DNA from: Streptomyces sp. JJ38
GTDB lineage: Bacteria > Actinomycetota > Actinomycetes > Streptomycetales > Streptomycetaceae
Reading direction: 5' to 3'
DNA length: 64,000 nt
NCBI RefSeq assembly: GCF_019303475.1
Contig: NZ_JABLSI010000013.1
Location: forward strand, 62,001 to 126,000
The notes below the pieces were generated by a model. It was not told where the DNA came from and did not search any database. It saw only the letters and a program-made list of their open reading frames with translations. This document shows positions 10,316-31,505 of the stretch, piece after piece (position 1 is the first letter of the stretch; each line of letters opens with the position of its first letter). A program made the position numbers and the translations under genes.

Positions 10316-11100
10316 GCAGCGAGAACACGACGGGCACCGCCCGGCCGATGGTGAAGGCCGAGCAGGTCCACAAGTCCTTCGGACCCGTGGAGGTGCTCAA
10401 GGGCATCGACCTGGAGGTCGCGCCGCAGGAGGTCTTCTGCCTCGTCGGCCCCTCCGGTTCCGGCAAGTCGACCTTCCTGCGGTGCATCAACCACCTGGAG
10501 AAGATCAACGCCGGGCGGCTCTCCGTCGACGGGCAGCTCGTCGGCTACCGGGAGAAGGGCGACAAGCTCTACGAACTGCGTGAGCGTGAGGTCGCCGAGC
10601 AGCGCAAGGACATCGGCATGGTGTTCCAGCGCTTCAACCTCTTCCCGCACATGACGGCGCTGGAGAACGTCATGGAGGCGCCCGTCCAGGTCAAGCGCGA
10701 GTCCAAGGCCGTCGCCCGGGAGCGGGCGGCGCGCCTCCTGGAGCGCGTGGGGCTGGCGGACCGGATGAAGAACTACCCCGCGCAGCTCTCCGGCGGCCAG
10801 CAGCAGCGCGTCGCCATCGCCCGGGCGCTGGCGATGGAGCCCAAGCTGATGCTCTTCGACGAGCCGACCTCCGCGCTCGACCCGGAGCTCGTCGGCGAGG
10901 TGCTGGACGTCATGCGGGGCCTGGCCGAGGACGGCATGACCATGATCGTCGTCACCCATGAGATGGGCTTCGCCCGCGAGGTGGGCGACTCCCTGGTCTT
11001 CATGGACGAGGGCGTGGTCGTCGAGTCCGGACATCCGCGGGACGTGCTCACCAACCCGCAGCACGAGCGCACGCAGGGCTTCCTCTCCAAGGTGCTCTGA
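10312..11100 (+). CDS. Amino-acid ABC transporter ATP-binding protein
   Basis: The 262-aa protein is a GlnQ/HisP-type ATPase. It shows Walker [10 protein letters not shown] (about residues 46-54), the ABC signature [15 protein letters not shown], and Walker [13 protein letters not shown] followed by the switch His in VVTHEMGFA. An insertion [15 protein letters not shown] follows the Walker A region and is common in this actinobacterial subfamily. It powers import together with the two preceding genes. The operon ends in the hairpin at 11125. Confidence 0.95.
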
Positions 11101-15411: not shown

Positions 15412-15864
15412 GTGAGTGACGGCATTACGCAACTGCGCCTGGACGACGGGACGGTGGTGTGGGCGCGCGTCAGCGAGGCACAGGAGCTGCGCCCGGGCGG
15501 CGGATACCAGGACTCGGCCCTGAGCGGCCGGGTCACCGAGCTGGCCTCGGGCCTGGCCGACACCGTGCGGGGTGTCGTCCGCTCCGTGCGCATGGGCATG
15601 GCCGCGGCGGCGCCGGACGAGGTGACCGTCGAGTTCGGGCTGGAACTCGCGGCCCAGGAGGGGAAGCTGGTCAGCCTGCTGGCCAACGCCCAGGGGACGG
15701 CGTCGATCAACGTCACCCTCACCTGGACGGAGCGCGGTGGCGGGCGCGGTCGCGCCCGGGAGGCCGAGGCCGCCCCCGAGGCGGCCGGGGCAGCGGAGGA
15801 GCCGCGGAGCGCGCCCTCCGTGCCTCCCGCGCCCCGATCCGCCGCCACCCCCTCGACCCCGTGA
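15412..15864 (+). CDS. CU044_2847-type small protein, trypsin-VMAP partner
   Basis: The 150-aa protein resembles the CU044_2847 family: a compact domain of about 110 residues, with strands around VTVEFGLELAAQEGKLVSLLA and ASINVTLTWTE, followed by a Pro/Ala-rich disordered tail. Such proteins are usually encoded next to trypsin-like or caspase-like peptidases in bacterial conflict loci, where a regulatory or substrate-delivery role has been suggested. The GTG start at 15412 is the first in frame after the divergent promoter gap. Its stop overlaps the protease start by 4 bases (GTGA), so the two proteins are made together. Confidence 0.8.
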   Translation: MSDGITQLRLDDGTVVWARVSEAQELRPGGGYQDSALSGRVTELASGLADTVRGVVRSVRMGMAAAAPDEVTVEFGLELAAQEGKLVSLLANAQGTASINVTLTWTERGGGRGRAREAEAAPEAAGAAEEPRSAPSVPPAPRSAATPSTP

Positions 15865-17906
15865 GCGCCCTCGACGCACTCGTGCGCGGTGCGGTCGCGC
15901 GCATTTCCGCGCCCGGCGAGGGGTATGACGCGCCCAGCGACACCTTCTGGGGGAGCGGCTTCTTCGTCGCGCCCACGTACTTGCTGACCTGCGCGCATGT
16001 TCTGGATCAAGGAGGTGGCGAGGTGTGGACCAGGCCGGAGGCCGTCGGCGTGACGTGGGCCGGCGGCCGGGCCGTCGGCACCGTGCGCCTCGCGCTGCCG
16101 GTGCCGGAGCCGGGCGGCGGCCGTACGTTACGCGGCTGGCCCGCGCCCGACCTCGCCCTCGTGGAGGTGCCGGAGGCCACCGACGTCGAGTGCGTGTGGC
16201 TCAGCGACCGGGCGGCCTTCGAGGGCAGCCGGGTCGCCCTGCACGGCTGGTCGCTGGCCACCGGCACCCGGGCCTACCGCCCGGTGGCCGGAGAGGTCAG
16301 CGGGCTGGACGGGCCGCTGCTCCTGCTGCGCGGGGAACGGCCGGTGGCGGGCACCTCCGGCGGCCCGGTGGTGGACACGGTGCGCGGCGAGGTCATCGGC
16401 ATCTCCAAGGCCCGGGACGAGAGCGATCCGACGGCGGGTGTGGCGGTACCCGTCACCGCCCTGCACGCCCTGCTCGACCTGCCGGACGGCGGGCTGCTGG
16501 CGGACGTGCTCGCCGCGCACGACCGCTACCACCTGGGCCGGTTCCGGGCGAACGCCCCCGACCCCTCGTGGACGGACGCGCAGTACGAGCTGTGCGGCGA
16601 GCGGCCGCGGCACTTCACCCCGGGGCTGCGCACGCACCTGCTCGGCTGTCTGGCCGCGCTGACCCCGCCCGACACCTCCGGTGAGGTGACCTCGCTGGTG
16701 GACGCGGTACGCGTGCGCACGCTCCAGGGCCGCTACCGGCAGGGCGTGGACGAGCCGACGCCCCGCACCTGGCGGGAGGGCGTCGGACTCCTCTACGGCC
16801 GGGAAGAGCGGCCCGAGCTGATGGGCATGGTGCGGTACGCGGCGGAGGTCGCGAGCCTCGTGCGCGCCCGCGGCCACACCCGGGACGCGGGCCCCCTCGC
16901 GGAGTTGAGCGCGTGGGTGCGGGCCACCGCCGAGCCGCTCATCGACATCCGCCAGGAGGTCCAGGAGATCCTGGACGGCGCCGACCCGGGCACCCCCAAA
17001 CACCGCTCCCGGCCGCGGGCCGCCGTCCGGGTGGTCATCCATCCGCGCAGCTACGGCGACCGCTACCCGTGGGAGGTCAAGCTCGTCTTCGACCCCCTGG
17101 GCGCCGACGATCCGAGCGGCGTCACCGGTTTCGACGGTGACGACACCGGGCACCGCCGCGGCGAGCTGCGGGAGGCGCTGCGGGGGGCGCTGGCCGCCGC
17201 GCTGAACCAGTGCGACGTGGGCGGCCAGTTGGCGGCCGTCGAGTTCGTGGTCCCGCGTGACCTGTTCGATCTCCCCTTCGACTCCTGGGAACTGGCCCCG
17301 CGCCGCACGCCCGAGGGGGCGACGAATCCGCACGGGCTGCCGCTCGGGCAGCGGCGGGTGGTCGCCGTCCGGGACCTGCTGCGCACGGTCGTCGAGCCCA
17401 CCCAGGAGTGGCGGCGGCGCTGGGCGGCCGCGCAGAGCGGGCCACTGGCGGCGGTCCCGCTGCGTTCGGGGGTCGAGGTGTGCGGGCACGACGGCGGGCC
17501 CCGCGGCGAGCGCTGGGGCGCCGTCTACGACCGGCTCTCCAGCGCCCCGCCGGGGAGCGTGCCGGTCTACTGCGGCGGTGTCGGTGACGGGGACGGCGCG
17601 GAGGCGATGGACGCGGCGCTGACCGCGGGCCACCCGGTGGTGATCTGGCGCTCGCAGGCCGGCGGGCACACGGATTGCGCCGAGTTCCACCGTCAGGCCG
17701 AGGACTTCGTGGCCGAGGTCCGTACCGCCGAGGGCCTGCACGGCCCGCTGCGCAGCCTGCGCATCCGCACCTGCGATCCCGACGGGAGCGACCCGGACAC
17801 CGCCTGGGGCCGCTCGATCGCCCTGCTCTACGACCCGCCGGAGCCGGACGCGGGTGCCGTCGGCTCCGTCCACGAGCCGTATCCGACCCCGGAGGAGCCC
17901 TGGTGA
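15861..17906 (+). CDS. Trypsin-like serine protease fused to VMAP-type effector platform
   Basis: The 681-aa protein begins with a trypsin-like domain (about 1-205). His46 is in LLTCAHVLD, Asp97 in PDLALVEV and Ser166 in AGTSGGPV, so the triad looks complete. A helical middle region (about 210-370) is followed by a C-terminal domain (about 375-681) with VRVVIHPRSYGDRYPWEV, FDLPFDSWEL and HPVVIWRSQ. That domain resembles the VMAP-C region of vWA-MoxR-associated proteins. No signal peptide is present, so the protease is cytoplasmic. In the published VMAP scheme a MoxR ATPase and a vWA protein license an effector carried by VMAP, and both genes follow here. Cleavage of host or invader proteins on triggering is inferred. 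Its target is unknown. Confidence 0.85.
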   Translation: MSALDALVRGAVARISAPGEGYDAPSDTFWGSGFFVAPTYLLTCAHVLDQGGGEVWTRPEAVGVTWAGGRAVGTVRLALPVPEPGGGRTLRGWPAPDLALVEVPEATDVECVWLSDRAAFEGSRVALHGWSLATGTRAYRPVAGEVSGLDGPLLLLRGERPVAGTSGGPVVDTVRGEVIGISKARDESDPTAGVAVPVTALHALLDLPDGGLLADVLAAHDRYHLGRFRANAPDPSWTDAQYELCGERPRHFTPGLRTHLLGCLAALTPPDTSGEVTSLVDAVRVRTLQGRYRQGVDEPTPRTWREGVGLLYGREERPELMGMVRYAAEVASLVRARGHTRDAGPLAELSAWVRATAEPLIDIRQEVQEILDGADPGTPKHRSRPRAAVRVVIHPRSYGDRYPWEVKLVFDPLGADDPSGVTGFDGDDTGHRRGELREALRGALAAALNQCDVGGQLAAVEFVVPRDLFDLPFDSWELAPRRTPEGATNPHGLPLGQRRVVAVRDLLRTVVEPTQEWRRRWAAAQSGPLAAVPLRSGVEVCGHDGGPRGERWGAVYDRLSSAPPGSVPVYCGGVGDGDGAEAMDAALTAGHPVVIWRSQAGGHTDCAEFHRQAEDFVAEVRTAEGLHGPLRSLRIRTCDPDGSDPDTAWGRSIALLYDPPEPDAGAVGSVHEPYPTPEEPW

Positions 17907-18015: not shown

Positions 18016-19107
18016 GTGAACGACTGGCGCATCTACCGCGGAGCGGGGCTCCCGCACGACGGTATCCGGCGGCTGCCGCCCCCGCCGCCGTGGCGGGACT
18101 TCGCCGCCGCGGGCCCGGACGGGGACGCCGGGCCGGATCCCGAGGCGGGCCCGCTCACCGGAGGACCCGACCGTCCAGGAGAGGTGGAGGCGGCCGAGGC
18201 CGCCGTGGCCGAGGCGGACCCGAGCGCGGCGCGTCGGCTGGGCGTGCGCCGGCGCCTCGTGGAGAACCACCACCCGCGGCCGGAGGAGGTGGAGGCGGTC
18301 AACGCCGCCCTCTACCTGCGGCGGCCGCTGATCGTGACGGGCAACCCGGGCACGGGCAAATCGACCCTGGCCCACGCCGTGGCCTACGAGCTGGGCCTCG
18401 GCCGGGTGCTGCGCTGGCCGATCGTCAGCCGGACGACCCTGCAGGACGGGCTGTACCGCTATGACGCGATCGGCCGGCTCCAGGACGTCCAGCTGGAGCG
18501 CGCGGCGGGCGGCGGGGAGGCGACGACGCCCCGGCCGATCGGTTCCTATGTGCGGCTCGGCCCGCTGGGCACCGCTCTGCTGCCCGCCTCCCGCCCCCGG
18601 GTGCTACTCGTGGACGAACTGGACAAAAGCGACCTCGACCTCCCCAACGACCTGCTCAACGCTCTGGAGGAGGGCGAGTTCACGATCCCCGAGCTGGAGC
18701 GGGTGGCGGACCGCGAGCCGACGGCCCAGGTGCTGACGGACGACGGCCGCCGGGTGGAGGTGACGGGCGGGCGGGTCCGGTGCACGACGTTCCCGTTCAT
18801 CGTCCTCACCTCCAACGGCGAGCGGGACTTCCCGCCCGCCCTGCTGCGCCGGTGCATCCAGCTGGAGCTCGAACCGCCGGGGGAGGAACAGCTCGCCGCG
18901 ATGGTGGCGGCCCATCTGGGCGCGGACGCCGTCACGGCGGGGGAGGACCTCATCGCCCGCTTCCTCAGCCGCGACCCGGGCTCCGTCATCGCCGCCGACC
19001 AACTGCTCAACGCCCTCTACCTCACGCAGCACACCCCGCAGGCCGAGCGGGTGACCAGGGACCGACTCGCCGAGATCCTGATGCAGCCGCTCGACCGGCC
19101 GCGGTGA
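18016..19107 (+). CDS. MoxR-type AAA+ ATPase
   Basis: The 363-aa protein has a Pro-rich N-terminus (about 1-60), then an AAA+ module. Walker A is GNPGTGKST (109-117), Walker B VLLVDELDK (196-204) with the catalytic Glu201, and sensor-1 is in FIVLTSNGERDFPPALLRRC with the arginine finger. Its insert and the DLPNDLLNALEEGEF helix place it with MoxR-like proteins of vWA-MoxR systems. It would remodel or license the protease-VMAP protein using ATP. The GTG start is at 18016. Its stop lies 7 bases before the vWA gene, so they form one unit. Confidence 0.9.
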   Translation: MNDWRIYRGAGLPHDGIRRLPPPPPWRDFAAAGPDGDAGPDPEAGPLTGGPDRPGEVEAAEAAVAEADPSAARRLGVRRRLVENHHPRPEEVEAVNAALYLRRPLIVTGNPGTGKSTLAHAVAYELGLGRVLRWPIVSRTTLQDGLYRYDAIGRLQDVQLERAAGGGEATTPRPIGSYVRLGPLGTALLPASRPRVLLVDELDKSDLDLPNDLLNALEEGEFTIPELERVADREPTAQVLTDDGRRVEVTGGRVRCTTFPFIVLTSNGERDFPPALLRRCIQLELEPPGEEQLAAMVAAHLGADAVTAGEDLIARFLSRDPGSVIAADQLLNALYLTQHTPQAERVTRDRLAEILMQPLDRPR

Positions 19108-19114
19108 GGCCGCG

Positions 19115-22100
19115 ATGACGGAGGAGGGACGGCTGCGGCACGTCTTCACCCGGCTGCGGGCGGCCGGACTCGACCCGAGTGCCGAGGACGTCGCCGACGC
19201 CCTGTGGCTCGCCCGGGCCACGGCCCCGGAGTGGCCCGGCGGCGCGGAACCCCGCTCCGGGGGCGCTGACTCCGCCCCGGCCGGGCGCCCTGACGACGGG
19301 GACGCCCGGCCGGGCGCCGTCGGCGAACCGGCGCCGCCCCCGGCTTCGCCGTCCCGCACGCCCCGGCCGGGGCACGGGCCCTCTCCGCCCGTCTCGCTGT
19401 TCACGCCGGCACCCGAGGCGGAGGGAGTGGACGGTGAGGGGCAGGCGGCCTTCCCCGTCCGGGTACCGGTGGCCGCCGCGCTGCCCGGGCTCCTCGGCCT
19501 GCAGCGCGCCCTGCGCCCCCTGCGCGGCTACCGGCCCCGGACGGCCAGCGGCCGCTATGGTCTCGACGAGGAGGCCACCGCCGACCTCAGCGCGCGGGCC
19601 GGAGTCCTGCGGCCCGTGTTCCGCCCGGTCGAACGCTGGGGAACCGACATGCAGCTCCTGCTGGACACCTCACCCTCGATGGTGGTGTGGGAGCGGATGT
19701 TCGAGGAGTTACGGCAGGTCTGCGAGCAGATCGGCGTCTTCCGCGACGTGCAGGCGCACTACCTGCACCGCGCCGAGGACGGCAGCGCGGTGATCGGCAC
19801 CACGGCCGGCGGCGGGGGCGTGCCCCGGCTGCGGTCCTCCGGGCAGTTCCGCGATCCGACGGGGCGCCGGCTGACCCTCGTCGTGAGCGACTGCGTGGGG
19901 CCGCTGTGGCGCTCCGGCGCGGCTCAGCGCATGCTGCACGCGTGGGCCGAGGCCTCGCCCGTCGCCGTCGTCCAGCCGCTGCCGCCCCGGTTGTGGTCGC
20001 GTACCGCCCTCCCCGCCGTCCACGGCCGGCTGCTGCGCAGACCCGCGGGCGGTCCGCTGACCTTCCAACCCGACGGCTACGGCCCCGGCGCACGCCCGGC
20101 CCCGGGAGCGCGACCGGTTCCGGTACTGCTGCCCACGGTCGACGCGTTGGGCGCCTGGGCCCGGCTGCTGTCCGGGACGGGCGACGTCTCCGCGCGGGGC
20201 GCCGCCGCCTGGTTGCGCGCCGACCACCCGCCCGCGCCGGCGCCCGGCCCGCGCCGCCAGGCCGCCCGCAGCCCGGAGGAGGCACTGCGCGCGTTCACCG
20301 CCGCGGCCTCGCCCGGCGCACGCCGGCTGGCCACCCATCTCGCCGCGGCCCCGACCACGCTTCCGGTCATGCAGCTCGTCCAGCGGGCCCTGCTGCCGGA
20401 CACCGGCCCGATGGAGCTGGCCGAGGTGCTGCTCGGCGGCCTGCTGTGGCAGGTGCCGGGCCAGACCGAGGGCCCGGCCCACGGCATCGGCGCGGGGCCG
20501 CACTACCGCTTCGCCCACGGGGTGCGGGAGATGCTGCTGGAGTCGCTGGGCCAGGACGCGGCGGCCAACGTGCTGGGGCACTGCTCGCGGCTGGTGGCCC
20601 GGCACTTCGGCAAGGGCGCCCGTAACTTCCCGGCCCTCGCGGTCGCCCGGCTCACGGACGCCTCACCCGGTCCGCGAGCCGAGCCGACGCCGTCGGCCCC
20701 GGACGAGCGTGCGCGGGCCGAGGGGCGGGCGGCCCCGCTCCCGCCCGCCGAGGAGGAGGACGACGGCGGGGTCACCTCGCAGACCTCCCTGTTCGCCGAG
20801 GTGCCCGCCCGCGTCGTGCGCTGGTTCCAGCCCGCCCCCTCCAGCGAGGACGGGGCCGGGCCCCTGGGCAAGGCCGAGGCGCTGCTGCGCGAGTGGCGGC
20901 AGCAGCGCGACCCGGCCCTGCTCGCCCAGGCCAGGCACTACGCCGAGGACGCCCTGCTCGGGCAGGAGACGGATACGGGGGAGGACGCCGACGGCGTGCG
21001 GGCGCTGCTGGCCCTCGGCAGGGTGCTGCTGGCCCAGTCGGGCACCCCGGCCGTCCGGCGGGACGGGTCGGCCCGCCGCGAAGTGCTCAGCCGGGCCCAG
21101 ACGTATCTGACGGAGGCCCTGCGCCGGGCGGAGCCCGGGCACCCCTGGCGGGCTCAGGCGGCGTTGGAGCTGGCCGCCGTCCACTACGGCACCTGGCACG
21201 CGGCCGGTGAGGCCGAGCAGCTCGCCGCGGCGGAGCGGGTGCTGCGGGGGCTGGACGCGGCGTCCCTCCCGCCCGAGGAGCGGCGCACCCGGCATCTGCG
21301 GCTCGGCCGGGTGCTGCTGGCCCGTGCCGAGGCCGAGCCCGCGCCCCGGCTGCGGGCGGGGCTGGCGGCCGAGTCCGTGCGGGAACTGCGGGCGGCCTGC
21401 GAGCAGTCGGAGGCGGCGGACGTGCCGGACGACCTGCGGGTGGGAGCGCTGCTGGACTTCGCAGCGGCGCTACGGCTGCACGGCCGCACCGAGGAGGCCC
21501 TGGAGACCGTGCGCCGGGCGCAGGAGCTGACGGCACAGGCCCCGGCGCTGGGGGAGCGGGCCCAGCTCGTGCGCGCCCGCACGCTGGCCGACGCCGGGCG
21601 GGCCGAGGAGACCGACGCGGCCTACGCGCAGGCCGCCAACGCGGCCCCCCGCGACAGCATGCGCCGGTGCGAGATCCTCGCGGAGTGGGGCGCGCGGCTG
21701 CTCGACCGGGCCTCCGCCCCCGCCGCGAGCGACGCCACCGTGGCCCGGGCCGAGGGAGTGCTGCGGGAGGCGTTCGCCACCGTCCCCGGCCGCGCCCCGC
21801 TCTTCTCCCGGCTGCAACTCGCCCTGGCCCGGGCGCTGCTCGTACGCCACCGACGGGGTGGCTTCCCACCCGACCGCTACGAGGCCGTACACCTGCTCCA
21901 GGGCGCCGCGTGGCGCGGTGCCGACGCGGAGCTGCGCGCCGACGCCTGGCTGGAGCTGGGCCGGGTGCTGGCGGCCGAACTCCCGGGGGGCGGGGGCCGG
22001 GACGCGGGGGAGGCGGGAGCCGCCTTCCGGGCCGCACTCCGTGAGGCGCGCGCCGCGGCCCGGGGCGCCCCGTCCGTCGCGGTGGCCCGCGTCCTGCACG

Positions 22101-22264
22101 CCCAGGGCGCGTTGCTGGCCGCCGAGGGGCACGCGGATGCGGCCCGGGAGGCCTTCCAGGAGGCGTCGGCGGAGTGGCGGCGGCTGGTCGCGCACCTGGA
22201 GCCGGTGCCGTGGGACGAGGTGGACGAGACACGACGGCGCCTCGCGCCCCCGCCCGGCCGCTGA
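19115..22264 (+). CDS. SAV_2336-type vWA-like protein with TPR tail
   Basis: The 1049-aa protein has a short N-terminal helical domain (about 1-40), a Pro-rich linker, and a vWA-like domain. Its metal site DTSPS (184-188) fits the DxSxS MIDAS motif, and VVSDCVG lies further on. A winged-helix-like section follows (LPVMQLVQRALLPDTGPMEL, about 405-500). The C-terminal half (about 560-1040) is alpha-helical TPR-like repeats with conserved Leu/Ala/Gly spacing. This matches the SAV_2336 family, the vWA component of vWA-MoxR-VMAP systems. It likely acts as sensor or scaffold with the MoxR ATPase. Genes 18016 and 19115 are separated by 7 bp. Confidence 0.85.
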   Translation: MTEEGRLRHVFTRLRAAGLDPSAEDVADALWLARATAPEWPGGAEPRSGGADSAPAGRPDDGDARPGAVGEPAPPPASPSRTPRPGHGPSPPVSLFTPAPEAEGVDGEGQAAFPVRVPVAAALPGLLGLQRALRPLRGYRPRTASGRYGLDEEATADLSARAGVLRPVFRPVERWGTDMQLLLDTSPSMVVWERMFEELRQVCEQIGVFRDVQAHYLHRAEDGSAVIGTTAGGGGVPRLRSSGQFRDPTGRRLTLVVSDCVGPLWRSGAAQRMLHAWAEASPVAVVQPLPPRLWSRTALPAVHGRLLRRPAGGPLTFQPDGYGPGARPAPGARPVPVLLPTVDALGAWARLLSGTGDVSARGAAAWLRADHPPAPAPGPRRQAARSPEEALRAFTAAASPGARRLATHLAAAPTTLPVMQLVQRALLPDTGPMELAEVLLGGLLWQVPGQTEGPAHGIGAGPHYRFAHGVREMLLESLGQDAAANVLGHCSRLVARHFGKGARNFPALAVARLTDASPGPRAEPTPSAPDERARAEGRAAPLPPAEEEDDGGVTSQTSLFAEVPARVVRWFQPAPSSEDGAGPLGKAEALLREWRQQRDPALLAQARHYAEDALLGQETDTGEDADGVRALLALGRVLLAQSGTPAVRRDGSARREVLSRAQTYLTEALRRAEPGHPWRAQAALELAAVHYGTWHAAGEAEQLAAAERVLRGLDAASLPPEERRTRHLRLGRVLLARAEAEPAPRLRAGLAAESVRELRAACEQSEAADVPDDLRVGALLDFAAALRLHGRTEEALETVRRAQELTAQAPALGERAQLVRARTLADAGRAEETDAAYAQAANAAPRDSMRRCEILAEWGARLLDRASAPAASDATVARAEGVLREAFATVPGRAPLFSRLQLALARALLVRHRRGGFPPDRYEAVHLLQGAAWRGADAELRADAWLELGRVLAAELPGGGGRDAGEAGAAFRAALREARAAARGAPSVAVARVLHAQGALLAAEGHADAAREAFQEASAEWRRLVAHLEPVPWDEVDETRRRLAPPPGR

Positions 22265-22485
22265 GCCGGGGCCGCCCGGGCCGTGCACCGTCCCGCGTCG
22301 TGCGGCGGCGCCGCGCACCGTGCCGTGCCGGCCGCCCTGCGCGGCCGACGCGGACCTTCCGGGCGCAGAACGCCTGGCGACGGCCGAAGCACAGCGGGGC
22401 GGGTTTCCCCCGCCGGGCCTGCGGGAAGAACCGTCCAGCCGTTCGGGCGGCGTACGGCAGAAGTCGGCGGGGAGGAGAGCCCAGG

Positions 22486-22764
22486 GTGTCCACCGACGAG
22501 CAGACGGTGCCGCCGGGCCCCGGGGCCGACGTCTGTCCCCTCCCCGACCTCGGCGAAGTCCCGTTGGCCACGCTGGCCGATCACGCGGACCCCCGGCTGG
22601 CGGCGCGCGTCGAGGCGCTCCTGCGCCACCCGGAGGCCCTCGACGAGACCTGGGCCGGAACAACGGACTCGGAGCCGCTGCCCAGCCCGACCGGCGGTTT
22701 CCGGTCAAATCCGTTACCCGGCCCGCCGCGGGGGGACGACGCTCGCGGGGCACGTGAGACGTGA
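22486..22764 (+). CDS. FxSxx-like RiPP precursor peptide, 92 aa, non-canonical C-terminus
   Basis: The frame starts at GTG 22486 behind a good GGGGAGGAG. Residues 18-50 contain LPDLGEVPLATLADHADPRL, which matches the leader of FxSxx-COOH peptides (an LxDLxxVPLxxL helix, then DPxLxxxLRR). A conserved-looking FRSNP (Phe72, Ser74) fits FxSxx, but 16 more residues follow, where canonical precursors end. The stop overlaps the HExxH hydroxylase start by 4 bases, so the two are translationally coupled. In known systems a radical SAM enzyme links Phe in this motif; none is encoded in this window. The peptide may be a hydroxylase-only substrate or a drifting relic. It is small and GC-rich, but the coupling and the leader similarity support it. 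Confidence 0.72.
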   Translation: MSTDEQTVPPGPGADVCPLPDLGEVPLATLADHADPRLAARVEALLRHPEALDETWAGTTDSEPLPSPTGGFRSNPLPGPPRGDDARGARET

Positions 22765-24122
22765 CGGCGTACCCGGTCGGCACGGTGGACACCGTGGGCG
22801 GAACGCGTGTGCCCGCCGCCGCGCTCTCCCGCATGGCGGCCACCCGGCTCGTCCGCGGCGATCTCGCCCTGCTGCGCCGAGCCCAGGAGGACCGCGCCCT
22901 GGTCCTCCTCAAGGCCGTGCACACCCGGCTGAGGCGCTGTCCCGAGGCTGTCGGCGCCGAGGTCCACCGCGCCTTCGCGGCGCACTGGGCGCTCCTGGCC
23001 CGGGCCGAGGCCGGGCGGCCCGCCGCCGCCCGCTTCGCACTGGGCTACCCGGCCGTGGGGGCCCGGCTGGTGGCGGCGGTCCGGGCCGCCGAAGGTGCCG
23101 AGCTGGAGCGGGCGCTCGCCGCGTTCGGCGCCGCCGCGGTGGCCGTCGCCCTGCACACCGGCACCGCGTGCACGGCCGACCTGACCGCCCCCGAGGGCAC
23201 GCTGGCCCTGCCCGGGGTTGGGGTCCTGCGGACCTCCGCCCCGTGGGTCCGGGTGAGCGTGCGTGCGGGCGCGGCGTGGGTGCGGCCGTTGGGGTACCCC
23301 CGGGCCGGGGCGGCGGTGCTGCGGCTTCCCGGAGCCCGGGCCCGGGTCCGGTGGACGGGGGTGGGCCCGGGGTGGCGGCAGCCCGCCCGGCTGCCCGGCT
23401 CGGCGGCCCGGCTGGAGGACGTCGATCCCTTCCGCGTCCCGCCCGGCGGGGTGGGCCTGCCCGGGCTGGAGCCGAGGCCGGCCGCCGAGCGCAACGAGGC
23501 GGCGGCGTTTCCCTGGGCGGCGCGCTGGAGCCGTGCGCTGGCCCTGCTGCTGACGGCCGACCCCGCCCGGGCGGCCGAGACCAGGGCGCTGGTCCGGGCG
23601 GTCGTGCCGCTGGGCGCGGCGCCGTCGGGCGGCGGCCGGGGCCGGGTGAGCGCGACGACGCGGGCCGTGCCGGGCGCCCTGCTGACCACGTGGCCGGGTT
23701 CCCCCGTGGAGCTGGCCGCCGTCCTCGTCCACGAGACCCACCACACCAAACTGGACCTCGTGCACGAGCTGGCGCCCCTGCACGGGCCCGGTCCCGAGGA
23801 GCCGGAGGGCGTGGCGGACGGCGCGGCCCACCGGGTGGGGTGGCGGCCCGATCCGCGCCCGGTGCGCGGTGTGCTGCACGGCACGTACGCGCATCTGGCC
23901 CTCGCGGACCTGTGGGCCCGGCTGGCCTGTGGCGGGACGGCGCCCGAGCGGTTCCGGAGGGCGGCCGGGGAGCAGCACGAGCAGTGCTGGGAGCAGGTGC
24001 GCGAGGCGCTGCCGATCCTCCTCAATTCGCCTGAACTCACCTACGCTGGAAGACAGTTCGCGATAGGCATGAGTGAGTACCACCAGAGTCTGGGGAAACG
24101 GGTCCGACCGCGCCGCAGATGA
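22761..24122 (+). CDS. Alpha-ketoglutarate HExxH-type peptide beta-hydroxylase (putative)
   Basis: The 453-aa protein has the HExxH motif HETHH (His324, Glu325, His328) in a conserved setting VLVHETHHTKLDLVHEL. A downstream RGVLHGTYAHLALADLW (about 369-385) is a candidate region for the further metal ligand. The N-terminal half is an Ala/Leu-rich helical domain beginning MTAYPVGTVDTVGG, typical of the HEXXH motif family linked to FxSxx peptides. Once taken for metallopeptidases, family members are now regarded as alpha-ketoglutarate-dependent hydroxylases that modify RiPP side chains. Here it stands alone, not fused to a radical SAM enzyme. The 4-nt overlap with the precursor gene points to that peptide as substrate. 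Confidence 0.8.
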   Translation: MTAYPVGTVDTVGGTRVPAAALSRMAATRLVRGDLALLRRAQEDRALVLLKAVHTRLRRCPEAVGAEVHRAFAAHWALLARAEAGRPAAARFALGYPAVGARLVAAVRAAEGAELERALAAFGAAAVAVALHTGTACTADLTAPEGTLALPGVGVLRTSAPWVRVSVRAGAAWVRPLGYPRAGAAVLRLPGARARVRWTGVGPGWRQPARLPGSAARLEDVDPFRVPPGGVGLPGLEPRPAAERNEAAAFPWAARWSRALALLLTADPARAAETRALVRAVVPLGAAPSGGGRGRVSATTRAVPGALLTTWPGSPVELAAVLVHETHHTKLDLVHELAPLHGPGPEEPEGVADGAAHRVGWRPDPRPVRGVLHGTYAHLALADLWARLACGGTAPERFRRAAGEQHEQCWEQVREALPILLNSPELTYAGRQFAIGMSEYHQSLGKRVRPRRR

Positions 24123-24213
24123 CCGGAGAGCGACGCCGCGGTGACATAGAGTGCTGCTCTCTCGCGTCGGTCGGCGGGGCGACGCGGTTCTACGCAACGA
24201 GGGAGACGTGCGC

Positions 24214-27200
24214 ATGGCCGCACAGCGGCATTCGGCAGGCAGCGGGGCGACCGAGCACCGCAGCGAACATTTCGTCATCGCCTTCCCCGGCTACAACCGG
24301 CCCTGGGCGTCCTGGATCGCCCGGCGGCTGGAGGCTTACCGCCATACGACCACCCTGCTCCGCTGGGACCCGCCCCGCGACGAGCCGCTGGAGTCGGCGT
24401 TCGCCGATCTTCTGCTGTCGGGCAGCCGGGTGATCCTGGTCCTGAGCGACTGGTTCTTCCAGCTCGGACCGCGCCGCGAGGGCGAGTGGAACGAGGTGCT
24501 GCGCGGCTATCTGCGCGACAACGCCGACCGGTTCGCCGCCGTCAGTCTCACCAACCGCACCCTGCTCCCGGCCACCACCGTCCTCCAGCCCGTCGATCTG
24601 TGGTCCGTCGGCGCGGACGAGGCCGAGTGGCGGCTGCTGACCCGGCTCGGGCTCCCCACGAACGCGCCGGAGCGCACGCTGGGCGGCGGTTCCCGCTACC
24701 CCAACGACCCGCCGGTCGTCTGGGGCGAGGTGCCGCTGCGCAACCCTCGTTTCACCGGCCGCGAGGACCTGCTGATGGTGCTTCAGCAGCGGCTGACCGA
24801 CACCCAGTACGGCATGGCGGCCTGCGCCCTCGTCGGGATGCCCGGCATCGGCAAGACGCAGCTGGCCGCCGAGTACGCGCACCGCTTCACACCGGACTAC
24901 GACGTCGTGTGGTGGATTCCCTCGGACCTGCGCGGCACGCTGCGCGAGCGGTACGGCGAACTCGCCCCCGAGCTCGGGCTGTCCGTCGGCACCGAGACCG
25001 GTGAGCGCATCCGCGTCGTGCGGGAGGCGCTGCGCCGGGGCGATCCCTACGGACGCTGGCTGCTCGTCTTCGACGGCTGGGACGATGTCGAGGGCGCCGA
25101 CGGGCTCCTCCCGCAGGGCTACAGCGGCCACGCCCTCATCACCTCCCGCAACCGGGACTGGGGCCGCACGGTCGACGTCCTGGAGGTGCCCGGATTCCAG
25201 CGGTACGAGTCGGCCGCCTATCTGATGCGCCGCGCCGCGCACGTCACCGTGAGCGATGCCGAACTCGTCGCCGAGGAGCACCGGGACGTCCCCCTGTCGC
25301 TGGCCCAGGCCGCGGCACTGCTGGACGAGACCAAGATGCCCGTCTCCGAGTACCTGCGCATGGTGCGGGACACCGTCACCCCCCTGCCGGGCCGGGCGGA
25401 GCTGGAGGGTTACTCCGACGCCTCCCTCACCTCCTGGTCGATCATGATCAACCGGCTGCGGGCGGCCCAGCCGCGCGCCGTCGAGCTGCTGACCCTGGCC
25501 ACCTGCTTCGCCCCGGGACGCATTCCGATCGGTCTCGTCCACGGCATCCCGCAGGGCGACCTCCCCGACCGGCTGTCGTGGATCGCCGAAGACCCGGCGG
25601 GCTGGTCCCGTGCTCTGGACGCCCTCGTCAACTACTCGGTCATCACCCGTGACAGCCGCAGCGCGGCGGCCGCCTCCAGCGGCGGGGAGCCCAGCCCCCG
25701 GCAGGAGACGATCCACATGCACCGGCTCGTCCACGAGGTGATGGGACGGCTGACGACCGCCGAGGACCGGGAGACCTACCGCAGGGTCGTGCGCAGGCTG
25801 CTTGCCGAGGCCGACCCGGGGCAGCCGCTGGAGGCCACCCAGTGGCCCCGGTACGCCGAGCTGCTGCCGCACCTGGAGCCCTCCGGGGCGCTGAGCAGCA
25901 CCCACCCCCGGGTCCAGGCCACGGTCCTCAACTGCCTCAGCTACTGCCTGCGGGCCGGAGAGTACGTGCTCGGCAGCCAGCTCGCCGAGCGCGTCCGCCA
26001 GCGCTGGTCGGAGTTCATGGAGCCCGACGCCCGGCGCATGCTGGAGCTCACCACCCAGCAGGGCAACATCCTGCGCAACATGGGGCACTTCCGCACCGCC
26101 TACGAGCTCGACCGCGGCATGCTGGAACGGCTGCGGGCCGCCGAGGAGCCCGACGTGCACTCGCTGCTGACGGCGCGGAACTGCTACGCCCAGGACCTGC
26201 ACTACCTCGGCCAGTACGAGGAGTCGCTGCAGCTCCAGCGCGAGGTGCTGGAGACGGCCCTGCAGGTGCGCGGCCCGGAGAACTACACCACCCTCACCAA
26301 CCGCCACAACCTGGCGCTCGCCCTGCGCATGCTCGGCCGCTACACCGAGGCCTACGAGATGGACGTCGAGACGCTGCGGCTGCGCGAGTCCCTGCTGCGC
26401 CCCCGGCACGCGGCGACGCTCTTCTCCGGCACCGCCTGCGCCCGTGACCTGCGGCTGATGGGCCGCTACCGGGACGCGCTCGCCCGCCAGGAGCTCGTCG
26501 TCCGGCTGCACCTCCAGGTGCTGGGGGCCCAGCACCCGCAGACGCTGGCGGCCCGCGCCAACCTGGTGTTGTGCGAACGGCGGGCCGGCAGCCCGCACCA
26601 GGAGGTCGGGCGGGTCATGGCGAGCCTGCTGGAGCAGTACGAGCAGGTCTACGGCGCCGCCCACCACCAGACGGCCGTCTTCCGCACCGACTACGCCAAC
26701 TACCTGCGCGAGCACGGCGACCTCGACCTCGCCCGGGACTACCTGGAGCAGGCGGCGGCCGTCTTCCGCAACGTCCTGGGGCCCGCCCACCCGATCACCA
26801 CCGGCATGCTGTCCAACGCGGGGCTCATCCTCCAGGCCGCCGGAGAGCGGGCCGAGGCCATGGCCGTCTTCGAGTCCGCCTACGCCGGGCTGGCCGCCAC
26901 CCTCGGCGACGACCACCCCTGGGTCCTGGGCTGCGCGCTCAACGCCGCACGCGGCCGCAACTTCAACGACCGGCTGGAGGACGCCGCCGAGCTCAGCCGG
27001 GACACCCTGCGCCGCTCGCGGCGGGTCCTGGGGGAGGACCACCCCATGACGCTCTCCGCGCAGACCGGGCTCGCGGCCGACCTGCGCTCGCTGCGCGAGC
27101 GGAAGGAGGCCGACAAGCAGGAGGAGGACGCCCTCCTGCGGCTCACCCGCACCCTCGGCCCCCAGCACCCGCACACGCTCTCCGCCCAGCGCCGGGTGCG

Positions 27201-27234
27201 GCCGTACTGGGACCTGGAGGCCACCATGGGCTGA
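24214..27234 (+). CDS. TIR/NB-ARC/TPR protein, FxSxx-COOH system type (FxsT-like)
   Basis: The 1006-aa protein has three parts. Residues about 19-150 form a diverged TIR-like domain (HFVIAFPGYNRPWASWIA, then SRVILVLSDWFFQLG). Residues about 175-500 form an NB-ARC STAND ATPase with Walker A GMPGIGKTQ (208-216), Walker B LLVFDGWDD (283-291) and ALITSRNRDW as sensor. Residues about 590-1000 are TPR repeats of the kinesin-light-chain type, with HPQTLAAR-like repeats. Such proteins accompany FxSxx peptides and act as signal-responsive ATPases. The ATG at 24214 is favoured by GAGGGAG eight bases upstream. A GTG at 24208 is possible. A strong hairpin follows the stop. Confidence 0.87.
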   Translation: MAAQRHSAGSGATEHRSEHFVIAFPGYNRPWASWIARRLEAYRHTTTLLRWDPPRDEPLESAFADLLLSGSRVILVLSDWFFQLGPRREGEWNEVLRGYLRDNADRFAAVSLTNRTLLPATTVLQPVDLWSVGADEAEWRLLTRLGLPTNAPERTLGGGSRYPNDPPVVWGEVPLRNPRFTGREDLLMVLQQRLTDTQYGMAACALVGMPGIGKTQLAAEYAHRFTPDYDVVWWIPSDLRGTLRERYGELAPELGLSVGTETGERIRVVREALRRGDPYGRWLLVFDGWDDVEGADGLLPQGYSGHALITSRNRDWGRTVDVLEVPGFQRYESAAYLMRRAAHVTVSDAELVAEEHRDVPLSLAQAAALLDETKMPVSEYLRMVRDTVTPLPGRAELEGYSDASLTSWSIMINRLRAAQPRAVELLTLATCFAPGRIPIGLVHGIPQGDLPDRLSWIAEDPAGWSRALDALVNYSVITRDSRSAAAASSGGEPSPRQETIHMHRLVHEVMGRLTTAEDRETYRRVVRRLLAEADPGQPLEATQWPRYAELLPHLEPSGALSSTHPRVQATVLNCLSYCLRAGEYVLGSQLAERVRQRWSEFMEPDARRMLELTTQQGNILRNMGHFRTAYELDRGMLERLRAAEEPDVHSLLTARNCYAQDLHYLGQYEESLQLQREVLETALQVRGPENYTTLTNRHNLALALRMLGRYTEAYEMDVETLRLRESLLRPRHAATLFSGTACARDLRLMGRYRDALARQELVVRLHLQVLGAQHPQTLAARANLVLCERRAGSPHQEVGRVMASLLEQYEQVYGAAHHQTAVFRTDYANYLREHGDLDLARDYLEQAAAVFRNVLGPAHPITTGMLSNAGLILQAAGERAEAMAVFESAYAGLAATLGDDHPWVLGCALNAARGRNFNDRLEDAAELSRDTLRRSRRVLGEDHPMTLSAQTGLAADLRSLRERKEADKQEEDALLRLTRTLGPQHPHTLSAQRRVRPYWDLEATMG

Positions 27235-27353: not shown

Positions 27354-30300
27354 TCAGATGTCGAAGACCTCCGACACCAGCTCCGTCTGCTCCTGAGCGT
27401 GCCGCTTCGGCGAGCCGACCGCCGGCGAGGAGGACGACGGACGGGAGACCCGGCGCAGCCGGTCCGCGTTGTCCGGCGCCGCGCCGATGATCAGGTCCAG
27501 GTGGTCCACCAGGTTCAGCGCGATGAACGGCCACGCACCCTGGTTGGCCGGCTCCTCCTGGGCCCACACGTACTTCTGGGCCTTGGTGAAGGGGGCCAGC
27601 GCCTCCTGGATCTCCTTGGCGGGCAGCGGGTAGAGCCGCTCGATGCGGATGAGCGCCGTGTCCGTCGCGCCGCGCTTGCGCCGCTCGGCGTCCAGGTCGT
27701 AGTAGACCTTGCCGGAGCAGAAGACGACCTTGCGGATCGCCTCGGCGCTCACCTCGCCGGAGTCGACGAGCGTGTCGCCGATGACCGGGCGGAAGCCGCC
27801 GCTGAGGAACTCCTCCGTCTTGGAGGCCGCTGCCTTGAGCCGGAGCATCGACTTCGGGGTGAAGACGACCAGCGGCTTGTGGTGCGGGTTGTGCACCTGC
27901 CAGCGCAGCAGGTGGAAGTAGTTCGACGGCAGCGTCGGCATCGCGACGGTCATGCTGTTCTGCGCGCAGAGCTGCAGGAACCGCTCGATGCGGGCCGAGG
28001 AGTGGTCCGGCCCCTGGCCCTCGTAGCCGTGCGGCAGCAGCAGGGTGACGCCGGAGGTCTGGCCCCACTTCTGCTCGGCCGAGGAGATGAACTCGTCGAC
28101 GATCGTCTGGGCGCCGTTGACGAAGTCGCCGAACTGCGCCTCCCACATCACCAGCGCCTCGGGGCGGGCCAGCGAGTAGCCGTACTCGAAGCCCATCGCC
28201 GCGAACTCGCTCAGCAGCGAGTCGTAGACGTTGAACCGCGCCTGGTCCTTGCCCAGGTACAGCAGCGGCGTGTAGTCGTCGCCGGTGTTCTGGTCGATGA
28301 GCACCGCGTGCCGCTGGCCGAAGGTGCCGCGGCGCGAGTCCTGGCCGGCCAGCCGCACCGGGGTGCCCTCCATCAGCAGCGAGCCGATGGCCAGCGTCTC
28401 GCCCATGCCCCAGTCGATCGTGCCGTCCTCGACCATCGCCATGCGGCGCTGGAGCTGCGGCAGCAGCCTCGGGTGGACGGCGATCCGGTCGGGGATGTTG
28501 ACCTGGGACTCGGCGATCCGCTTGACGACCTCCTCGCTGACGGCGGTGTCCAGCGCGACCGGGAACTCCGGCTTGACCGCCGGGGCCTCGGCGGCCTCGC
28601 CCGGCGTCACGGCGGCGGCCTCGCGGACCTCCGTGAACACCTTCTCCAGCTGCCCCTGGAAGTCCTGGAGCGCCTGCTCCGCCTCCTCCATCGTGATGTC
28701 GCCCCGGCCGATCAGCGACTCGGTGTACAGCTTGCGCACCGAGCGCTTCTTGTCGATCAGGTTGTACATCCGCGGCTGGGTGAACTGCGGGTTGTCGGTC
28801 TCGTTGTGACCGCGGCGGCGGTAGCAGACGAGGTCGATGACGACGTCCTTGTTGAACGCCTGGCGGAACTCGAAGGCGAGCCGGCCGACGCGGACCACGG
28901 CCTCCGGGTCGTCCCCGTTGACGTGGAAGATCGGGGCCTCGATCATCCGTGCCACGTCGGTGCAGTACATCGACGAGCGGGCCGCCTCGGGCGCGGCGGT
29001 GAAGCCGACCTGGTTGTTGATGACGATGTGCACCGTGCCGCCGGTGCGGTAACCGCGCAGCTGGGACATGTTCAGCGTCTCGGCCACGACGCCCTGGCCG
29101 GCGAAGGCCGCGTCGCCGTGGAGCTGGACCGGCAGGACGGTGAAGTCCGTGCCGCCCTTGCCGATGATGTCCTGCTTGGCACGGGCCACGCCCTCGACGA
29201 CCGGGTCCACGGCCTCCAGGTGGGAGGGGTTCGCGGTGAGCGAGACGTTGATCTTCTCGCCGTCCAGGCCCGTGAACTCGCCCTCGGCGCCGAGGTGGTA
29301 CTTCACGTCGCCGGAGCCGTGCATCGACTTCGGGTCGAGGTTGCCCTCGAACTCGCGGAAGATCTGCGCGTAGGACTTGCCGACGATGTTGGCCAGCACG
29401 TTCAGCCGGCCGCGGTGCGGCATGCCGATGACGACCTCGTCCAGCCGGGACTCGGCGGCGGAGTCGATGACGGCGTCGAGCAGCGGGATGACGGACTCGC
29501 CGCCCTCCAGCGAGAACCGCTTCTGGCCGACGTACTTCGTCTGCAGGAACGTCTCGAACGCCTCGGCCGCGTTCAGCCGCCGCAGGATGCGCAGCTGCTC
29601 CTCGCGCTCGGGCGAGGTGTGCGGGCGCTCGACCCGGTCCTGGATCCACTTGCGCTGCTTCGGGTCCTGGATGTGCATGTACTCGATGCCGGTGGTGCGG
29701 CAGTACGAGTCGCGCAGGACGCCGAGGATGTCGCGCAGCTTGAGCATCGACTTGCCGGCGAAGCCGCCGACGGCGAACTCGCGCTCCAGGTCCCACAGGG
29801 TCAGCCCGTGGGAGGCGATGTCCAGGTCGGGGTGCTTGCGCTGCTTGTACTCCAGCGGGTCGGTGTCGGCCATGACGTGGCCGCGCACCCGGTAGGAGTG
29901 GATCAGGTCGAAGACGCGGGCGGCCTTGGTGACCTCGTCGTCGTGGGAGACGTCGATGTCCTGGTTCCAGCGCACGGGCTCGTACGGGATGCGCAGGGAC
30001 TCGAAGATCTCGTCGTAGAAGTCGTTCTGCCCCAGCAGGAGCTGGTGCATCTGGCGCAGGAACTCGCCGGAGGCCGCGCCCTGGATGACCCGGTGGTCGT
30101 AGGTCGAGGTGAGCGTCATCACCTTGGAGACGCCCAGCTTGTTCAGGGTGTCCTGGGAGGCGCCCTGGAACTCGGCCGGGTACTCCATCGCGCCGACACC
30201 GACGATCAGGCCCTGCCCGGGCATCAGTCGCGGCACGGAGTGCACGGTGCCGATGCCGCCCGGGTTGGTGAGGGAGGCGGTGACGCCGGTGAAGTCGTCC

Positions 30301-31199
30301 ATCGTCAGCTTGCCGTCGCGGGCGCGGCGGACGATGTCCTCGTAGGCCTGCCAGAACTCGAAGAAGGTGAGCGTCTCGGCCCGCTTGATCGCGGCGACGA
30401 CGAGCTGGCGATCGCCGTTCGGCTTCACCAGGTCGATGGCCAGGCCCAGGTTCACGTGCTCCGGCTTGACCAGCGTGGGCTTGCCGTCCTTCTCGGTGAA
30501 CGAGTGGTTCATCGAGGGCATCGCCTTCAGCGCCTGCACCATGGCGTAGCCGATGAGGTGCGTGAAGGACACCTTGCCGCCGCGGGCGCGCTTGAGGTGG
30601 TTGTTGATGACGATGCGGTTGTCGAAGAGCAGCTTCACCGGGACGGCGCGCACGGACGTGGCCGTGGGCAGCTCCAGCGAGGCGTTCATGTTCTTCGCGA
30701 CGGCGGCGCCGGGCCCGCGCAGCGTGACGTACTCGGGCCCCGTGCTCTCCTCGGTGGGAGCCGGCTTGGGCTTCGGCTGCTCCTTCGGGGTGGCGGCCCG
30801 CGTCTTCGGGGCCGCCTTCGGCTCCGCCTTCGGGGCGGCCTCGGTGGCCCGGGGGGGCGCGGGTGCGGCCTCCGCCGGCCGTGCCGGGGCCGCGGGGGCC
30901 TGGGCCGGGGCGGCCGGGGGCGGAGCCACAGCGGGCTGCACGTCGGCGGCCGGCGCGGGCCGGGCCTGCGTGGGGGCGGCGGCTGCGGGAGTCTGGGGCT
31001 CTCCGCTCGTCGTCTTGCCCGGCTTGTAGTCGGCGAAGAAATCCCACCAAGCCCGGTCAACCGAGTGCGGGTCCTGGAGGTACTGCTGGTAGATCTCGTC
31101 GACGAGCCACTCGTTGGGACCAAAACCGGTGGCCGGGCTCTTGCTTTGCCCGTCCTGGTCGGTCGAGATGCTCGAGGTGTTCGGGGACTGTGACGACAC
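27354..31199 (-). CDS. kgd: Multifunctional 2-oxoglutarate decarboxylase/dehydrogenase (E1o with E2-like domain)
   Basis: The 1281-aa enzyme converts 2-oxoglutarate in the TCA cycle. It has an N-terminal helix [20 protein letters not shown], a Pro/Ala-rich linker, an E2-like acyltransferase domain (catalytic [13 protein letters not shown]), and then the thiamine-diphosphate E1 module. The E1 part includes [40 protein letters not shown] and [13 protein letters not shown]. Actinobacterial Kgd has exactly this fusion and uses it with a separate lipoyl protein. The GTG start at 31199 was chosen because the protein then begins with the family-typical Ser/Thr-rich leader. A longer in-frame extension to 31352 lacks this support. 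In related species Kgd is controlled by the FHA protein GarA; that partner is not in the window. Confidence 0.96.
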
Positions 31200-31505
31200 G
31201 GCGGCAACCGCCCTCTTCCGCTTCACATGGTGGTGGACAGCGGAAATAAAGGCTACGCCTCCGATGCGCTTCGGTGCAGTCCGGACCGGCCAGTCGTCGT
31301 GTACGTCACATCTCGGCGTGTGTTTCAGGGCACGGTGAGGTGGGAAAGACAATTGATTTTGACCGTTCCGGGTACACGAACCCGGGGCTGTGGCGGGAGA
31401 CTGCCACAGCCTTTCGAAGGCGTCGCCGGTTCACGCGGACTTCACGCCGTGGACGCCACGGCGCCCGACGGCGGCCCGCCGGCGGACGTCGGCGTCGAGC
31501 CTACG
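31200..31505. other. 306-bp region upstream of kgd
   Basis: This gap carries the kgd promoter region and the 3' end of the sensor-kinase operon. I see a weak 6-bp stem (CCGGGT/ACCCGG) near 31369-31386 and otherwise no clear operator, terminator or RNA. Confidence 0.4.

What the first reader, a model, noticed from the sequence alone, without database searches (positions are those of the whole stretch)
22486..22764. FxSxx-like precursor whose motif is internal, with no radical SAM enzyme in the window
The leader matches FxSxx-COOH peptides, but FRSNP (72-76) is followed by 16 residues, and the cyclophane-forming radical SAM enzyme is absent from the whole window. The peptide is coupled by a 4-nt overlap to an alpha-ketoglutarate HExxH hydroxylase. 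This could be a hydroxylase-only RiPP or a decaying cyclophane system.
Basis: partly seen in the sequence, partly recalled or inferred. Interest (0 to 1): 0.82.

Follow-up and report, generated by a model that had tools for sequence, protein, structure and literature searches.

The report
Radical-SAM-free branch of FxSxx peptide systems
A Streptomyces gene cluster that makes a small peptide and one oxygenase to modify it, next to an immune-like signalling protein, belongs to a widespread branch that does without the usual radical-SAM enzyme; the FxSxx-like motif in the peptide is most likely just DNA control sequence that happens to be translated.

Summary
The ORF is real (22486-22764, 92 aa, GTGA overlap with an intact aKG-HExxH hydroxylase), and no radical SAM gene was found in the window. 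The leader is homologous to FxSxx precursors, but FRSNP is probably not an FxSxx motif. FxSxx-family precursors end LWG[FY]xxxx-COOH right after the leader; here the equivalent Trp is residue 56 and FRSNP starts 16 residues later. FRSNP reads out a nucleotide element (CCGTTTCCGGCCAG-like) present between leader and hydroxylase in 65 of 79 rows, in different frames and in 30 of the 65 outside the ORF.

The missing radical SAM is not local decay. Of 80 named Streptomyces loci fetched, 75 of 76 testable ones lack it, with HExxH and TIR-NB-ARC-TPR genes kept; on an 85-protein tree the radical-SAM-free hydroxylases form one side of one branch (SH-aLRT 100).

Best reading: a hydroxylase-only branch of the FxSxx/VMAP peptide systems, probably oxidising a short core around Trp56 and feeding the neighbouring signalling ATPase. 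Chemistry and signalling are inferred.

Unexplained: in group B the leader-to-hydroxylase spacer changed length at least 16 times on the tree and never changed phase (control spacer: 10 changes, 6 of phase), hinting at recoding. New variant of a known kind.

The parts
15459..17906 (+). Trypsin-like peptidase fused to VMAP-C domain (true start not determined)
   Evidence: PF20028 E 5e-38, PF13365 E 4e-13
18016..19107 (+). MoxR-type AAA+ ATPase
   Evidence: PF07728 E 1e-9; 'MoxR' from the described neighbourhood (PMC7159879)
19115..22264 (+). SAV_2336-type protein (the vWA component of the described systems), no NB-ARC match
   Evidence: NF041121 471 bits, cut-off 200; no Pfam match at E 1
22400..22433 (+). 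Element upstream of the precursor gene; in relatives (T)CGAACGGGTTTCCG...GGGAAGAACC; promoter- or operator-like
   Evidence: Motif search and listing over 76 loci, window included; a few rows (e.g. L091) lack it
22486..22764 (+). Precursor peptide, 92 aa, GTG start, stop overlaps the hydroxylase start
   Evidence: leader HMM E 3.8e-16, the window peptide being among the model's seeds
22537..22653 (+). Leader region to conserved Trp (residues 18-56, PLPDLGEV...ETW)
   Evidence: Leader HMM hits 81 of 85 loci scanned, the 4 others being radical-SAM-positive; Trp in 80 of 81
22651..22665 (+). Putative core around Trp56 (WAGTT), the position of LWG[FY]xxxx-COOH in FxSxx-family precursors
   Evidence: Position from 17 of 20 radical-SAM-positive loci, listed by a pattern that asks for W near the end; modification inferred
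22695..22708 (+). Conserved nucleotide element CGGTTTCCGGTCAA; read in the leader frame it gives FRSN
   Evidence: 13.84 bits/site against 7.81 +/- 0.19 in 12 dinucleotide-shuffle runs, 63 loci; window site scores 19.2
22699..22713 (+). FRSNP codons (residues 72-76), judged not to be an FxSxx motif
22761..24122 (+). Stand-alone aKG-HExxH peptide beta-hydroxylase, 453 aa, HETHH intact
   Evidence: TIGR04267 E 3.2e-41; HExxH invariant in 20 aligned sequences; profile match to PDB 22nu and 8s5f ChlH
24151..27234 (+). FxsT-type TIR-NB-ARC-TPR protein
   Evidence: NF040586 766 bits, cut-off 300; TIR_2 1e-11, TPR_12 1e-35, NB-ARC 6e-5 just below its cut-off

Best explanation
The locus is a radical-SAM-free, hydroxylase-only branch of the FxSxx / VMAP-linked peptide systems. 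Shown: a leader homologous to FxSxx leaders; a stand-alone aKG-HExxH enzyme with its metal motif intact; the VMAP, MoxR-like, SAV_2336 and TIR-NB-ARC-TPR neighbourhood; absence of FxsB as a trait of a whole branch; and FRSNP as the read-out of a conserved nucleotide element. Inferred: the hydroxylase binds the leader and oxidises a residue in the short core around Trp56; the modified, trimmed C-terminal peptide is a ligand or trigger for the TIR-NB-ARC-TPR protein, gated by the MoxR/vWA/VMAP proteins; the element at 22695-22708 is a second operator or promoter-like site for the hydroxylase half of the operon.
For: Of 80 named loci, 75 of 76 testable ones lack FxsB (4 too short upstream, 1 has it), and FxsT follows in 80 of 80. 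Radical-SAM-free hydroxylases are one side of a single branch, SH-aLRT 100, 51 chosen rows against 34. H324, E325, H328 and H378 are invariant in 20 sequences and align with the same residues in 22nu and ChlH 8s5f. A leader-HMM match in 20 of 20 radical-SAM-positive loci; two of three radical-SAM-free relatives tested match only positions 1-27 of the 44-position TIGR04268 model, below cut-off, the third hardly at all. Element: 13.84 against 7.81 bits/site in shuffles; strong (10 bits or more) in 65 of 79 rows, after the leader's stop codon in 30 and inside the ORF in 35, in differing frames. Conserved core after the leader: W in 80 of 81, then S (32 of 79) or E (19 of 79) at W+2.
Against: No chemistry was tested. 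The published ChlH hydroxylase needs a cyclophane already in place (PMC12636437, introduction read), so a radical-SAM-free relative need not hydroxylate an unmodified peptide. The window's core (WAGTT) departs from the commonest WYS pattern. The element is weak or missing in 14 of 79 rows, among them L091, L092, L094, L096, L098 and L037, which are among the hydroxylases most like the window's. In the window it is out of the phase kept in 60 of 65 rows. The operator role is inferred; the internal element's best match in the upstream region was modest (mean 5.9 against 3.6 bits in mononucleotide shuffles). Group A's tail, though free of third-position bias, does have coding-like GC periodicity (0.86/0.57/0.86), so some protein-level constraint there is not excluded. 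A second radical SAM enzyme exists on another contig and cannot be excluded as acting in trans, though it has its own HExxH neighbour.
Confidence: 0.66

Rival explanations
1. FRSNP is a genuine internal FxSxx core with a follower peptide, crosslinked by a radical SAM enzyme acting in trans (for example the 619-aa protein on contig C29).
For: A radical SAM/SPASM protein related to cyclophane-forming enzymes exists in the genome (73 bits to the FxsB model, 95 bits as a single protein).
Against: It is far below the FxsB cut-off of 370, sits with its own HExxH gene among other genes, and FRSNP starts 16 residues beyond the Trp after which FxSxx-family cores follow at once; only 4 of 81 precursors have F.S anywhere in the tail, the window and three with FGS rather than FRS.
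Confidence: 0.06
2. The locus is a decayed cyclophane system that recently lost its radical SAM gene and whose peptide is drifting.
For: The peptide tail varies freely and the window's hydroxylase has a long end branch (0.67).
Against: Absence is shared by a whole branch; HExxH, leader and FxsT are kept in relatives; hydroxylase and leader show strong third-position bias in substitutions in group B2 (573/526/1315 and 210/224/474). Selection on the window's own copy was not measured.
Confidence: 0.07
3. The HExxH protein is a peptidase, as proposed in 2020, that cuts the precursor to free a C-terminal peptide, or an oxidative backbone-cleaving enzyme like PflC.
For: PMC7159879 (section read) calls it a zincin-like metallopeptidase acting on the small protein; PflC and PosC cleave the backbone oxidatively and PflC shows proteolytic activity without leader (PMC12636437, abstract read).
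Against: The relatives with solved chains found by profile include ChlH, which a paper describes as a hydroxylase. No ARMD-like cleavage motif was noticed in the tails listed (not searched for specifically).
Confidence: 0.15

Closest known systems
FxSxx-COOH / FxsB cyclophane RiPP system (TIGR04268, TIGR04269, NF040586)
   Same: Homologous leader, HExxH domain, FxsT, same VMAP-MoxR-vWA neighbourhood and gene order
   Different: No FxsB, no C-terminal FxSxx, hydroxylase stands alone, core position marked by a conserved Trp with tails of 4-60 residues
VMAP ternary systems with peptide-processing module, RxD and acidic types (PMC7159879)
   Same: VMAP-MoxR-vWA plus small precursor plus HExxH protein; in the passages read the paper mentions radical SAM only for the FxSxx and FtsH-associated types
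   Different: In those types the AP-ATPase is fused to the vWA protein; here TIR-NB-ARC-TPR is a separate gene, as in the FxSxx type. Their motif tables were not seen, so overlap with one of their types cannot be excluded
ChlH aKG-HExxH beta-hydroxylase (PDB 8s5f) and PDB 22nu
   Same: Sequence family, HExxH and downstream His, WRxDxRP segment
   Different: [quoted passage not shown] that cannot arise here from a local radical SAM
PflC/PosC HEXXH enzymes, and BpmH, of other RiPP clusters (PMC12636437)
   Same: HExxH RiPP enzymes outside FxsB clusters; PflC and PosC work on the peptide alone, so radical-SAM-independent HExxH chemistry has precedent
   Different: Different precursor families; the pfl cluster has an MNIO-nitroreductase partner

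Membership tests
FxSxx-COOH precursor (TIGR04268) | Model match over the curated cut-off | tested here: not met
   No match at E 10 for the window peptide; 3 of 3 positive controls over cut-off
FxSxx-COOH precursor (TIGR04268) | Peptide ends F-x-S-x-x | tested here: not met
   16 residues follow FRSNP; 0 of 81 precursor rows, window included, end so
FxSxx-COOH precursor (TIGR04268) | Homologous leader | tested here: met
   Leader HMM has a match in 20 of 20 radical-SAM-positive loci
FxsB cyclophane system (TIGR04269) | FxsB radical SAM/SPASM gene in the locus | tested here: not met
FxsB cyclophane system (TIGR04269) | Cyclophane in the product | not testable with these tools
   Needs mass spectrometry
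aKG-HExxH peptide beta-hydroxylase (TIGR04267) | Model match over the cut-off and intact HExxH | tested here: met
   141 bits, cut-off 40; HETHH
aKG-HExxH peptide beta-hydroxylase (TIGR04267) | aKG-dependent hydroxylation | not testable with these tools
   Needs enzyme assay
FxsT (NF040586) | Model match over the cut-off | tested here: met
   766 bits, cut-off 300
VMAP ternary system | VMAP-C, MoxR-like and vWA (SAV_2336) genes together | tested here: met
   PF20028, PF07728, NF041121; a vWA domain as such was not hit by Pfam
RxD or acidic VMAP peptide type | AP-ATPase fused to the vWA protein | tested here: not met
   No NB-ARC match in 19115-22264; separate gene 24151-27234 (definition from PMC7159879)

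The most novel reading that the evidence does not exclude
In group B of the radical-SAM-free loci the precursor is recoded: ribosomes leave the leader frame at or before its TGA by +1 and continue in the frame that ends on the hydroxylase start codon, so that the frameshift rate sets the ratio of substrate peptide to modifying enzyme. In group A and the window the same junction is reached without a shift.
Probability: 0.15. Interest if true: 0.82.

Novelty: new variant of a known kind. Interest (0 to 1): 0.52.

Why it matters
It indicates that the radical SAM and the HExxH halves of these systems can go separately (NCBIfam also holds the opposite case, NF040587, a radical SAM protein with inactivated hydroxylase extension), and it gives an abundant natural set of minimal peptide-plus-hydroxylase pairs tied to a bacterial NLR-like protein. 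That makes a direct question testable: is the cyclophane or the hydroxyl group what the TIR-NB-ARC-TPR protein senses? It also warns against reading short peptide motifs out of high-GC read-through tails.

Tried and rejected
TIGR04268 search of the own genome gave nothing, but its control genomes rang nowhere, so I relied on hmmscan with positive controls.

A universal hairpin at the element was tested and not found: the best-paired register was 61% paired against 57% in permutations; the window stretch folds no better than shuffles (z -0.05), although the window itself has GACCGG-N6-CCGGTC at 22689-22706.

Recoding in group B. For: in 26 of 26 rows (25 loci, L086 and L162 being one) the spacer between leader stop and hydroxylase start is a multiple of 3, lengths 69 to 360 nt; on the tree of 18 representatives its length changed at least 16 times and its phase 0 times, while the vWA-to-leader control changed 10 times in length and 6 in phase (Fisher p 0.0009); the +1 frame is open in 26 of 26 and closes on an [AG]TGA start in 26 of 26 (hydroxylase frame open in 24, third frame in 18). 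Caution: my choice of start codon preferred [AG]TGA, so the closing overlap, and with it the A that begins the second codon in 18 of 18, is partly by construction; the frame relations do not depend on that choice. Against: no codon-position bias in substitutions (B1 63/50/68, B2 250/291/221, B3 65/82/71) and no clear GC periodicity in the B1-B3 spacers, while group A tails have one; openness alone is weak (3.3 interruptions expected, P 0.02); all 18 leader stops are TGA, but TGA is also 63 of 82 of the other stops counted; no shared slippery site seen by eye. An independent +1-frame ORF is unlikely in L111, L118 and L105, which have no ATG, GTG or TTG in the stretch scanned. Left as unexplained.

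The PADLOC scan gave only weak ATPase and protease matches. PLSDB plasmids held one distant HExxH record.

Spacer lengths used two misplaced starts (L100, L164); one search is used instead. On account of results against that the check brought out I changed three odds by 0.01 to 0.02: best explanation and recoding down, decay up.

Full report
What is there. The window (own genome contig C23, 62001-126000) carries, in one direction, a VMAP-C/trypsin protein, a MoxR-like ATPase, a SAV_2336 protein (the vWA component of the described systems), the 92-aa precursor, a stand-alone aKG-HExxH hydroxylase and a TIR-NB-ARC-TPR protein of the FxsT family. The precursor starts with GTG after a good ribosome site and its stop overlaps the hydroxylase start as GTGA. 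The sequence facts of the finding are right. No radical SAM gene was found in the window and no FxsB over its cut-off in the genome.

Is the leader an FxSxx leader? The curated model TIGR04268 gives no match to the window peptide at E 10, while three FxSxx-family precursors pass (45-51 bits, cut-off 28) and two of the three radical-SAM-free relatives given match only its first 27 of 44 positions at 22-24 bits; the third, from L092, reached 11.8 bits. A leader HMM built from radical-SAM-free relatives has a match in 20 of 20 radical-SAM-positive loci, E 1.9e-11 to 1.1e-4. So the leaders are homologous but the C-terminal half is not shared.

Is FRSNP the FxSxx motif? In 17 of those 20 radical-SAM-positive loci, listed by a pattern that asks for a W near the end, the leader is followed by LWG[FY]xxxx-COOH; the second residue after the F or Y is S in some and N or another residue in others. 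The corresponding Trp in the window is residue 56, and FRSNP begins 16 residues later. Of 81 related precursor rows, window included (79 distinct loci; two were fetched twice, as L086/L162 and L087/L148), followed to their stop codons, none ends in F.S.. or F.N.., four have F.S anywhere after the Trp, tails after the Trp run from 4 to 60 residues, and one (L155) has no Trp.

Why FRSNP is there. Between the Trp codon and the hydroxylase start, relatives share a nucleotide element, consensus CCGTTTCCGGCCAG. With 63 loci thinned for near copies it scores 13.84 bits per site; 12 dinucleotide-shuffled sets gave 7.81 +/- 0.19, maximum 8.08. At 10 bits or more (a limit I chose after seeing the scores) it is present in 65 of 79 rows: after the leader's stop codon in 30, inside the ORF in 35. 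In group A (24 rows) it lies inside the ORF and mostly reads F[SP][AV]; in 24 of the 26 group B rows it lies after the stop (L104 and L105 lack it); in L149, L146, L136, L158 and L151 it lies inside the ORF and reads IRST; in the window, inside the ORF, FRSN. It is weak or absent in 14 rows, among them L091, L092, L094, L096, L098 and L037, which are near the window by hydroxylase identity; this limits the claim that it is universal. The amino-acid reading varies while the bases are kept. In group A, where the tail is in frame with the leader, substitutions do not favour third positions (third 643, first 553, second 918), unlike leader (210/224/474) and hydroxylase (573/526/1315) of group B2; against this, the group A tail has coding-like GC periodicity (0.86/0.57/0.86). 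A second conserved element lies upstream of the precursor in most of the 76 loci examined, (T)CGAACGGGTTTCCG...GGGAAGAACC, window 22400-22433. The two share GTTTCCG, so I take both as regulatory sites, an inference.

Is it decay? In the first genus sample 95 of 150 genomes had a hydroxylase relative at E 1e-10. I fetched 40 regions, mostly the best matches: 16 have a radical SAM upstream, 21 do not, and 3 start too close to a contig end to tell. A scan of named genomes found 410 relatives, of which the best 80 were kept, all Streptomyces: 1 has FxsB (L161), 4 are too short upstream, 75 have none; FxsT follows in 80 of 80. These 80 are the nearest to my query, so the proportion is not a census. 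In a class-wide sample 58 of 296 genomes matched; of the 20 loci fetched, 3 lack radical SAM (all same genus, one being the window) and 17 have FxsB upstream. In a quick tree of 85 hydroxylases, 51 radical-SAM-free rows chosen to represent the set and 34 radical-SAM-positive rows (5 partial or truncated ones left out) are the two sides of one branch with SH-aLRT 100. The tree is midpoint-rooted, so loss against original absence is not decided; radical-SAM-positive forms occur in other families of the class and this form was seen only in Streptomyces, which favours loss.

Enzyme. H324, E325, H328 and H378 are invariant among 20 aligned sequences, and the profile matches PDB 22nu (E 5.5e-44) and ChlH 8s5f (E 5e-18) through the HExxH and WRxDxRP segments. 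[quoted passage not shown] PflC and PosC hydroxylate other residues and cleave the backbone oxidatively (PMC12636437; I read the first of six parts and passages). No structure was predicted here.

Mechanism proposed. The hydroxylase recognises the conserved leader and oxidises a residue in the short core W-x-[SE]-x; the processed peptide is a signal or trigger for the TIR-NB-ARC-TPR protein, under control of the VMAP-MoxR-vWA machine. The signalling idea is that of the 2020 eLife paper (PMC7159879; passages and section 24 read), which describes FxSxx, RxD, acidic and FtsH-associated types. The present locus has the FxSxx-type layout (separate TIR-AP-ATPase) without radical SAM and without FxSxx. 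I did not see its source tables, so I cannot say whether such loci were counted there. Searches for FxSxx, HExxH with RiPP, FxsB, VMAP and the TIGR/InterPro numbers listed no other paper whose listing describes this branch; the library lacks most subscription journals.

Unexplained. In group B (26 rows, 25 loci) the leader and the hydroxylase are always in the same frame although the spacer runs from 69 to 360 nt; the +1 frame is always open and ends on the start codon I assigned, a choice that preferred such overlaps. On a tree of 18 representatives the spacer changed length at least 16 times without a phase change, against 6 phase changes in 10 length changes in the control spacer. The spacer lacks codon-level constraint and no slippery site was seen. 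Recoding is the boldest reading; indels biased to multiples of three are another.

Noticed in passing
L036 (contig C29, 82000-99000): 7044-8903 and 9928-10830: Another cluster in the same genome: a 619-aa radical SAM protein (anaerobic sulfatase maturase model 123 bits, cyclophane maturase models such as YhhB and FxsB up to 96 bits, all these far below cut-off; the SPASM domain model passes at 29 bits) beside its own HExxH protein (TIGR04267 64 bits), a 2-hydroxyacid dehydrogenase-like and a dTMP-kinase-like gene.
   Followed up: partly
Group B loci, e.g. L118, L126, L141, L104: Leader-to-hydroxylase spacer stays a multiple of 3 through at least 16 length changes on the tree; +1 frame open to the start codon in 26 of 26 rows.
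   Followed up: partly
22400-22433 and upstream of the precursor in relatives: Promoter- or operator-like block (T)CGAACGGGTTTCCG-N-GGGAAGAACC, regulator unknown.
   Followed up: partly
L104, L105, between leader stop and hydroxylase start: Spacers of 360 and 252 nt that look built of short GC-rich repeats (by eye).
   Followed up: no
27354-31352, minus strand: A 1332-aa ORF that looks like the 2-oxoglutarate dehydrogenase/decarboxylase E1-E2 protein (recognised by eye, not searched), convergent with the FxsT gene; a curious neighbour for an aKG-dependent enzyme.
   Followed up: no
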